This document shows, piece by piece, positions 20,605 to 22,119 of a stretch of DNA of 64,000 nt. The notes under the pieces were generated by a model. The model made no database searches. It saw only the letters and a list, made by a program, of their open reading frames with translations, and was not told the DNA's origin. The stretch's first letter is position 1; each line of letters opens with the position of its first letter. Source of the DNA: an uncultured Lachnospiraceae bacterium. GTDB taxonomy: Bacteria; Bacillota; Clostridia; Lachnospirales; Lachnospiraceae. The stretch lies in contig ONBW01000006.1 in assembly GCA_900316165.1 (NCBI GenBank), positions 84,869 through 148,868 on the forward strand. The letters are read 5' to 3'. Position numbers and translations under genes: made by a program.

Positions 20605-21843
20605 ATGGCAAACGATAAGGTTGTACTCGCCTACTCAGGCGGACTTGACACCACGGCTATCATCCCATGGCTCAAGGAGAATTATGGATACGATGTAATC
20701 TGCTGCTGCGTTGACTGCGGTCAGGAGGAGGAGCTCGACGGACTTGAGGAGCGTGCAAAGCTTTCAGGAGCCAGCAAGCTCTATATCGAGGATATCACAG
20801 ACGACTTCGCTGAAAACTACATCATGCCTTGTGTAATGGCTGACGCTGTTTACGAGGATAAGTACCTGCTTGGTACATCAATGGCCCGCCCAGGCATCGC
20901 AAAGAAGCTCGTTGAGGTAGCCAGAAAAGAGAATGCTGTCGCTATCTGCCACGGTGCTACCGGAAAGGGTAACGACCAGATCAGATTCGAGCTCTCTATC
21001 AAGGCTTTAGCTCCTGATATCAAAATCATCGCTCCATGGCGTGATGACAAGTGGAAGCTCCAGTCCCGTCAGGACGAGATAGACTATGCAAAGGCACATG
21101 GAATCAATCTTCCATTCTCAGTTGACCAGTCATATTCACGTGACAGAAACCTCTGGCACATAAGCCACGAGGGACTTGAGCTCGAGGATCCTTCAAACGA
21201 GCCTAACTATGATCATCTGCTCGTTCTTTCAAACACACCTCAGAAGGCTCCGGACGAGGGTGAGTTCGTAACAATGACCTTTGAGTCTGGTGTACCTACT
21301 TCCATCAACGGAAAGAAAATGAAAGTCGCAGATATCATTCGTGAGCTCAACCGTCTCGGCGGAAAGCACGGCATCGGTATTATAGATATCGTAGAGAACC
21401 GTGTAGTTGGAATGAAGAGCCGTGGCGTCTATGAGACTCCTGGTGGAACTATCCTCTGCGAGGCTCACAAGCAGCTCGAGGAGCTCTGCCTCGACCGTGA
21501 TACCATGGACTTCAAGAAGGACGTTGCCAACCGTATGGCACAGCTTGTTTACGAAGGCAAGTGGTACACTCCTACTATGGAAGGTCTTATCGCTTTCACT
21601 AAGACTGTTCAGAAACCTGTAACCGGTGAAGTTCGTTTCGAGCTCTATAAAGGAAACATCATCAAGGCCGGCACCACCTCTCCGTATTCTCTCTACAATG
21701 AGTCTCTTGCAAGCTTCACTACTGGTGACCTCTATGATCATCACGATGCTCAGGGCTTCATTACCCTCTTCGGTCTGCCTATGAAGGTTAGAGCTATGAA
21801 GATGCGCGAAGTTGAGGAGAAAGAAAAATCGAATAACCAATGA
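20605..21843 (+). CDS. argG: Argininosuccinate synthase
   Basis: Joins citrulline and aspartate with ATP cleavage. The 412 residues begin with the P-loop-like LAYSGGLDTTAIIPWL typical of ArgG, then HGATGKGNDQIRFEL and the citrulline-binding region WHISHEGLELEDP. AAAGGA precedes the ATG. It is transcribed away from the argJBD unit, and no argH follows; instead a long inverted repeat and terminator do. Confidence 0.99.
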   Translation: MANDKVVLAYSGGLDTTAIIPWLKENYGYDVICCCVDCGQEEELDGLEERAKLSGASKLYIEDITDDFAENYIMPCVMADAVYEDKYLLGTSMARPGIAKKLVEVARKENAVAICHGATGKGNDQIRFELSIKALAPDIKIIAPWRDDKWKLQSRQDEIDYAKAHGINLPFSVDQSYSRDRNLWHISHEGLELEDPSNEPNYDHLLVLSNTPQKAPDEGEFVTMTFESGVPTSINGKKMKVADIIRELNRLGGKHGIGIIDIVENRVVGMKSRGVYETPGGTILCEAHKQLEELCLDRDTMDFKKDVANRMAQLVYEGKWYTPTMEGLIAFTKTVQKPVTGEVRFELYKGNIIKAGTTSPYSLYNESLASFTTGDLYDHHDAQGFITLFGLPMKVRAMKMREVEEKEKSNNQ

Positions 21844-21852
21844 CCATATTAA

Positions 21853-22072
21853 AAGCTGCCACAGATGATGGCTCACTAGGTCACGTTTTTCTGTTCGCTC
21901 GCGCGCGCTGATTAGCGGCCCTCTGACAAAACGCACAGAATTGCTTTTATAAAAATTGCTGACGCAATTTTTTAAGCAATTCTGTTTGAACGGTTGTCAC
22001 CCGGGCCGCAGCTAGCGCGCTCGTTCACGACGAAAAACGCAACAATCGTTCGCCATTCATCTGTGGCAGCTT
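21853..22072. repeat. Long nested imperfect inverted repeat after argG
   Basis: A 220-base element folds around one centre through seven helices: 21853-21872 with 22052-22072 (20 bp, one bulge), 21884-21891 with 22032-22039, 21903-21909 with 22014-22020, 21915-21921 with 22003-22009, 21925-21928 with 21995-21998, 21935-21946 with 21974-21985, and 21951-21959 with 21964-21972, closed by a TGAC tetraloop. About 67 base pairs result. Parts are CpG-rich (GCTCGCGCGCGC), unlike the neighbours. It lies in the 3' untranslated region of argG. A MITE-like element or structured RNA is possible. Confidence 0.85.
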
Positions 22073-22087
22073 CTATAAGCCAAAAAT

Positions 22088-22119
22088 ATCCCACGCGATT
22101 AAGCGTGGGATTTCTTTTT
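22088..22119 (+). terminator. Terminator between argG and metA
   Basis: A 9-bp stem (ATCCCACGC with GCGTGGGAT, six-base loop) is followed by TTCTTTTT on the plus strand and, on the other side, by ATTTTT for metA, so it probably works in both directions. Confidence 0.9.

What the first reader, a model, noticed from the sequence alone, without database searches (positions are those of the whole stretch)
21853..22072. A 220-base, seven-helix nested inverted repeat downstream of argG
About 67 base pairs nest around one centre and span the 3' untranslated region of argG, far beyond the ordinary terminator that follows at 22088. Mismatched internal loops and GC-rich arms (GCTCGCGCGCGC) differ from the AT-rich neighbours. 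TA dinucleotides lie near both ends (21850-21851 and 22074-22075), which could be the target duplication of a Tc1/mariner-type MITE. It could equally be a structured RNA or an RNase-processed 3' end. I match it to no named RNA family.
Basis: partly seen in the sequence, partly recalled or inferred. Interest (0 to 1): 0.7.

Follow-up and report, generated by a model that had tools for sequence, protein, structure and literature searches.

The report
Scattered DNA hairpin repeat after argG
The long hairpin after argG is one copy of a small repeat scattered through some Lachnospiraceae genomes, whose copies keep a folded shape while much of their sequence changes, which suggests that the shape of the DNA itself is what matters.

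Summary
In detail: window 21853-22072 folds into one long interrupted hairpin (RNA z -10.8; DNA z -9.9 and -11.6 on the two strands). It is multi-copy: six near-full-length copies plus partial ones in its own genome, 32 model matches in one relative, 1-8 in three others of the genus, and weaker members in 8 of 298 other family genomes. Four relatives keep argG next to metA without it. Covariation is very strong (24 of 34 core pairs with double-sided changes; 0 of 500 shuffles reach this), so a folded strand, or copying of one arm onto the other, has shaped it. G.T and A.C mispairs are equally common (139 vs 145; outer arms 48 vs 50), unlike one tmRNA control (13 vs 1), so selection on one RNA strand is less likely. 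Copies whose cores are 96% identical can share only about the innermost 15 arm bases, yet each copy's arms mostly pair with each other. No Rfam, phage, plasmid or viral-contig match was found, nor a TA rule, clear target duplication or partner enzyme. Best reading: a non-autonomous mobile DNA hairpin, a new variant of MITE/YPAL-like palindromic repeats, possibly recognised by shape. How it moves and any host role are not shown.

The parts
21850..21868 (+). left outer arm; its GCTGCCACAG or a near variant is seen in several other copies, beyond it copies differ
22057..22075 (+). right outer arm, complement of the left (95%)
21869..22054 (+). match to the family covariance model R1, 162.3 bits on +, 26.4 bits on -
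21887..21925 (+). 5' conserved block, TTTTCTGTTCG to CCCTCTG; holds conserved bases that the consensus structure leaves unpaired (columns 28, 29, 40, 43, 44 of A4 kept in 43-47 of 47 rows)
21998..22036 (+). 3' conserved block, CACCCGGGCC to CGACGAAAAA
21935..21985 (+). apical hairpin, variable between subfamilies (long in the own-genome type, short in many G012 copies)
22082..22117 (+). separate short hairpin followed by T-rich DNA, terminator-like; not part of the element
20605..21843 (+). argG, upstream neighbour (context)

Best explanation
It is a copy of a non-autonomous, interspersed DNA repeat. The element is a long interrupted palindrome with a conserved, polar core (two blocks with conserved unpaired bases around short helices that change almost only by Watson-Crick exchange) and outer arms whose sequence is much freer but which mostly pair with each other. 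Shown: it is multi-copy, its presence differs between close relatives at the same site, some copies are shortened by internal deletion, and folding is kept with no preference for the G.U pairs of either strand. Inferred: copies spread as DNA, extruded or single-stranded, by an enzyme not found here that reads the folded core; arms are kept matched by selection for folding, by arm-to-arm template switching, or by both. Copies are found more between convergent than between divergent genes, as expected if promoters are spared. At argG it is most likely a fairly recent, near-neutral insertion between the gene and its terminator.
For: Multi-copy in the own genome. Model matches at E<=0.001 in 5 of 13 genus genomes: 9, 36, 8, 3 and 1, of which 2 and 4 in the first two are reverse-strand reads of the same copies. 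Matches in 9 of 299 family genomes, own included. No element after argG in G007, G009, G011 and G012, which keep metA next to argG by inspection. L100 filled in G002, empty in G010; L206 filled in G260, no element in G335. Covariation: 53 pairs, 39 with a double-sided change, 19 copies; 34 core pairs in 46 distinct copies, 94.4% of cells paired, 24 pairs with a double-sided change, 0 of 500 shuffles reach it, slid registers 33-47% paired. G.T vs A.C: 139 vs 145 in 49 copies, 48 vs 50 in their outer arms, 59 vs 72 in 22 further copies, against 13 vs 1 in the window's tmRNA. Own arms pair above the 95th percentile of arms taken from different copies in 59 of 70. Convergent 19 vs divergent 6 (p 0.015). 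Only 7 of 71 copies have 7 or more T in the 12 bases after the 3' arm.
Against: No target duplication was shown and no partner was found. Y1 transposases (PF01797) are absent from G012, which has the most copies, and from G002 and G010; IS110 (PF02371) does not track the element; other transposase families were not searched. The 23 sites of the 3' half found at up to 2 mismatches all fall in known copies, so no copy split by a gene was seen, but that pattern misses diverged forms (such as L011, a 3' half alone). In the 34 core pairs G.T vs A.C is 47 vs 27, with 18 of the 47 in one column pair beside a loop. At one locus the core is identical in G260 and G335 (0 of 137 changes vs 43 of 530 in flanks), which hints at a host function; L101/L107 shows no such excess (5 of 136 vs 20 of 1000). 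A mild sense bias among co-directional neighbours (28 vs 15, p 0.066) could mean an RNA role. Arms pair poorly in some copies (11 of 70 not above the 95th percentile).
Confidence: 0.6

Rival explanations
1. A structured RNA element: the transcript of the 3' untranslated region folds and controls mRNA stability, RNase III processing or termination, and copies were spread secondarily.
For: Very strong covariation; often soon after a stop codon (median 82 bases from stop to model match for co-oriented upstream genes) with a mild sense bias, 28 vs 15; core unchanged between G260 and G335 at one locus.
Against: G.T and A.C mispairs equal while the one tmRNA control gives 13 vs 1; no Rfam match at gathering scores, only weak ones below them; no T run after the stem in 64 of 71; position not conserved; no model match in 8 of 13 genus genomes, although one of the eight, G007, holds an internally deleted copy.
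Confidence: 0.17
2. Covariation without function: replication template switching between the two arms (quasipalindrome correction) keeps the arms matched; the element is a decaying relic.
For: Homogenisation of inverted-repeat arms by template switching is described (abstract and outline of PMC8604942 seen); exchange with no strand preference; in L205 pairing is near perfect close to the core and decays outward.
Against: Conserved bases that stay unpaired are kept in most copies (A4 columns 28, 29, 40, 43, 44 in 43-47 of 47), which correction alone would tend to erase; 0 of 137 core changes at one orthologous locus.
Confidence: 0.15
3. Tc1/mariner-type (IS630) MITE with TA target duplication.
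Against: TA is not regular at the ends of other copies (inspection); outer arms are not a terminal repeat shared by all copies; the L100 filled/empty pair has no TA duplication.
Confidence: 0.03
4. A bidirectional transcription terminator family.
For: Convergent contexts exceed divergent ones (19 vs 6); at L103 and L206 the sister species has a short hairpin at or near the same place.
Against: No T run after the outer arm in 64 of 71 copies; argG keeps a terminator-like hairpin of its own downstream; L109 lies between two co-directional open frames, about 42 bases after one and 53 before the other, counted from the model match.
Confidence: 0.05

Closest known systems
YPAL / RU-2 repeats of Yersinia (review PMC2229807: section 11 read, other passages seen)
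   Same: Intergenic palindromic repeat of similar size, no TA rule at the ends, not A+T-rich, target sites described there as spanning or next to dyad symmetry; several copies here also sit between other inverted repeats
   Different: Different phylum; no target duplication detected here (YPAL: 3-26 bp); arms highly variable between copies with near-identical cores
REP repeats with RAYT transposases (PMC3733652: abstract lines and passages seen)
   Same: Multi-copy extragenic palindromes whose stem residues vary in a complementary way
   Different: REPs are 20-40 bp with a GTAG or CGTC tag; GTAG REPs go with a tyrosine transposase, and the richest genome here has no Y1 transposase. That paper often saw GT stem pairs and took them as a sign of RNA; here GT equals AC
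ERIC and Correia/NEMIS elements (PMC2229807 passages)
   Same: About 100-200 bp, next to genes, transcripts would form long stem-loops
   Different: Those have TA at the ends and target duplications; their sequences were not compared here
Integron attC sites (PMC3053210 passages)
   Same: Works-like comparison only: a folded single strand read through unpaired (extrahelical) bases
   Different: No cassette array seen; no integrase or attC box search was run; not claimed as a member

Membership tests
Tc1/mariner (IS630) MITE | TA target-site duplication | tested here: not met
   one clean filled/empty pair, L100; ends of copies by inspection
Tc1/mariner (IS630) MITE | terminal inverted repeat shared by copies | tested here: not met
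   pairs of copies with cores 92% or more identical often have arm scores within the all-pairs range
YPAL / RU-2 | no 5'TA3' ends, not A+T-rich | tested here: met
   model matches 0.43-0.67 G+C; ends by inspection, the argG copy itself having TA near its ends
YPAL / RU-2 | target duplications of 3-26 bp | tested here: inconclusive
   few clean empty sites, none with a clear duplication
YPAL / RU-2 | sequence homology to Yersinia YPAL | not tested
   no YPAL reference was aligned
REP/RAYT | Y1 (REP-associated) transposase in carrier genomes | tested here: not met
   PF01797 absent from carriers G012, G002 and G010, present in G000 and G009 and in G004, G005, G008, G011 without model matches
REP/RAYT | GTAG or CGTC tag next to a short stem | not tested
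   no systematic tag scan was made
Structured RNA family (Rfam) | match at a gathering score | tested here: not met
   4 matches in the window, none at this place
Structured RNA (general) | G.U tolerated more than A.C on the functional strand | tested here: not met
   core 47 vs 27 with 18 from one column pair
attC-like structure-recognised site | recombination of the folded strand by a tyrosine recombinase | not testable with these tools
   needs an assay; no integrase search was run

The most novel reading that the evidence does not exclude
A new class of mobile DNA recognised by shape: an enzyme binds the folded single strand through conserved unpaired bases in the core, so the flanking stem sequence is free to change and is rebuilt or replaced in new copies, leaving families in which copies share a core but each carries its own self-complementary arms.
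Probability: 0.2. Interest if true: 0.8.

Novelty: new variant of a known kind. Interest (0 to 1): 0.55.

Why it matters
Bacterial palindromic repeats are usually grouped by shared sequence. Here folding is kept while much of the sequence is not, with no strand preference, so strong covariation alone could have been read as a conserved RNA. The set is a good test case for telling RNA selection, DNA-hairpin selection and arm-to-arm copying apart, and it points to a mobilising enzyme not yet identified in these Lachnospiraceae.

Tried and rejected
Rfam at gathering and permissive thresholds: nothing credible. Phage and plasmid records by distant blastn and viral contigs by one pattern: no match. 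Y1/RAYT and IS110 as mobilisers: no association. Autonomous copy with a gene in the loop: the 23 sites of the 3' half (up to 2 mismatches, 13 genomes) all fall in known copies. Insertion into the loop of a pre-existing terminator: at L100 and L103 (sister G010) and L206 (sister G335) the sister genome lacks the arms, and no uninterrupted AAGCCTGC..GCAGGCTT hairpin with a 4-34 base loop exists in the own genome, so not adopted. Literature: eight searches; the rows listed name no such family, but only the top rows were shown and many subscription papers are not held. GGGACGGTTCTTTT and two longer forms of that motif were in no held paper.

Known faults. L212 was cut at the wrong place (1 of 71 rows); one search repaired it for arm pairing, not for the context counts. 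ORF calls are a simple open-frame heuristic, and distances are from the match padded by 40 bases. A4 (47 rows, 46 distinct) is fitted to its own model, so pair counts lean towards it. Copies are related, so counts of copies are not independent events. In one search the loci of G001, G004, G005, G006 and G008 show the wrong side of argG or stop short and say nothing about its 3' side; G002, G003 and G010 show no element there, G010 at a contig end. The tmRNA control is a single molecule. In one search the arm alignment is poor in a few copies (for example L089_1489, L093, L096, second L094).

Full report
Observation. Window 21853-22072 is a real, far-from-chance hairpin on both strands. It sits between argG (20605-21843) and a separate terminator-like hairpin; a convergent homoserine O-succinyltransferase gene follows.

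Copies. blastn in the own genome gave 18 matches, several of them the same place on the opposite strand: six near-full-length copies (L001-L006) and partial ones. L007, L008, L009, L014, L016 and a 35-base place on C111 look like internal deletions that keep the outer hairpin; L011 and L013 keep only 3' parts. By blastn 3 of 61 genomes had a match (own, G012, G002). A covariance model (R1) found matches in 5 of 13 genus genomes: G000 9, G012 36, G002 8, G010 3, G009 1; 2 of the 9 and 4 of the 36 are reverse-strand reads of other matches. A second model (R2) found matches in 9 of 299 family genomes, own included, with stricter filters than usual; the eight others score 27-50 bits, weak, but many of those printed show the same motifs and fold. 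A DNA pattern scan of named genomes hit five Lachnospiraceae assemblies and one named 'Clostridiales'.

Gain and loss. Four relatives with argG next to metA have no element there, so a gain in this genome is simplest. At L100, G002 is filled and G010 empty: one base of the empty site is unmatched at the join and the arms are absent from it. At L206 the sister G335 has no element. Shared sites also exist: L101/L107 (G002/G010), L110 (G009/G007, with an internal deletion in G007 at a CGCT repeat), L210 (G260/G335), and L002/L046 (G000/G012, where G012 keeps mainly the arms).

Structure. On 19 copies RNAalifold predicts 53 pairs, 39 with at least one double-sided change. On 46 distinct copies 94.4% of cells pair, 24 of 34 pairs have double-sided changes and no shuffle of 500 reaches this. 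Some unpaired core bases are nearly fixed (A4 columns 28, 29, 40, 43 and 44 in 43-47 of 47 rows). The model is polar: 162 bits on one strand, 26 on the other.

DNA or RNA. In RNA stems G.U is tolerated and A.C is not (established knowledge), so their ratio shows which strand folds. Here they are equal: 139 vs 145 in 49 copies, 48 vs 50 in outer arms, 59 vs 72 in 22 further copies. In the 34 core pairs it is 47 vs 27, with 18 of the 47 from one column pair beside a loop. The tmRNA of the window gives 13 vs 1. So the DNA hairpin, both strands, or arm-to-arm copying is the likelier cause; a sense-strand RNA is the weaker reading.

Arms. Own arms pair above the 95th percentile of arms from different copies in 59 of 70 copies. 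Yet copies with 96% identical cores can share little beyond the innermost 15 or so arm bases (L196/L214, L003/L004). Other sets (three G333 copies, three G205 copies, many G012 copies) share longer arms, so arms can travel with the core. How arms come to differ is not solved: at shared sites they are largely conserved (95-100% in L101/L107, L110/G007 and L210/G335; 82 and 95% in L002/L046), so fast drift alone does not explain it.

Context. Of 71 copies (one row mis-cut), neighbours were co-directional sense 28, co-directional antisense 15, convergent 19, divergent 6, unknown 3. Divergent sites are fewer; the sense bias is only suggestive (p 0.066). No T run follows the stem in 64 of 71.

Mechanism. 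Shown: dispersal, presence/absence differences, folding constraint, no strand preference. Inferred: movement as DNA by an unidentified enzyme that reads the folded core. Not shown: target duplication, partner gene, transcription, effect on argG.

Comparison. The nearest described kind is YPAL/RU-2, then REP/RAYT and ERIC/Correia; attC is a works-like comparison only. Features tested fail for Tc1/mariner and REP/RAYT and are incomplete for YPAL, so no membership is claimed.

Noticed in passing
G012 loci L084, L086, L091, L094, L097: Copies in opposite orientation lie 0.5-1.0 kb apart around DNA with no ORF over 95 aa wholly between them; four of the five units have a GGGACGGTTCTTTTTGTCCC-type hairpin on both outer sides and one on one side.
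   Followed up: partly
L002, L005, L006 (own genome): Copies sit between inverted copies of GTTTGCAGGCTT-like sequence, facing the opposite way to a simple terminator hairpin (L002 in a diverged form); no uninterrupted version was found in the genome by the pattern used.
   Followed up: partly
L205 (G333): One copy is flanked by arms that match for roughly 75 bases almost without mismatch, then decay.
   Followed up: no
L002 vs L046: Intergenic DNA and the start of the next gene look far more alike between G000 and G012 (60 bases right of the core 95% identical) than the 500-base flanks (83-85%); perhaps a transferred tract.
   Followed up: no
L089 (G012:C43:80788-81143): Two copies in tandem about 200 bases apart; the outer arms of the first do not pair well.
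   Followed up: no
L109 (G010): A copy lies between two co-directional open frames by the heuristic; by eye the downstream protein resembles a V-type ATP synthase subunit (recalled, not searched).
   Followed up: no
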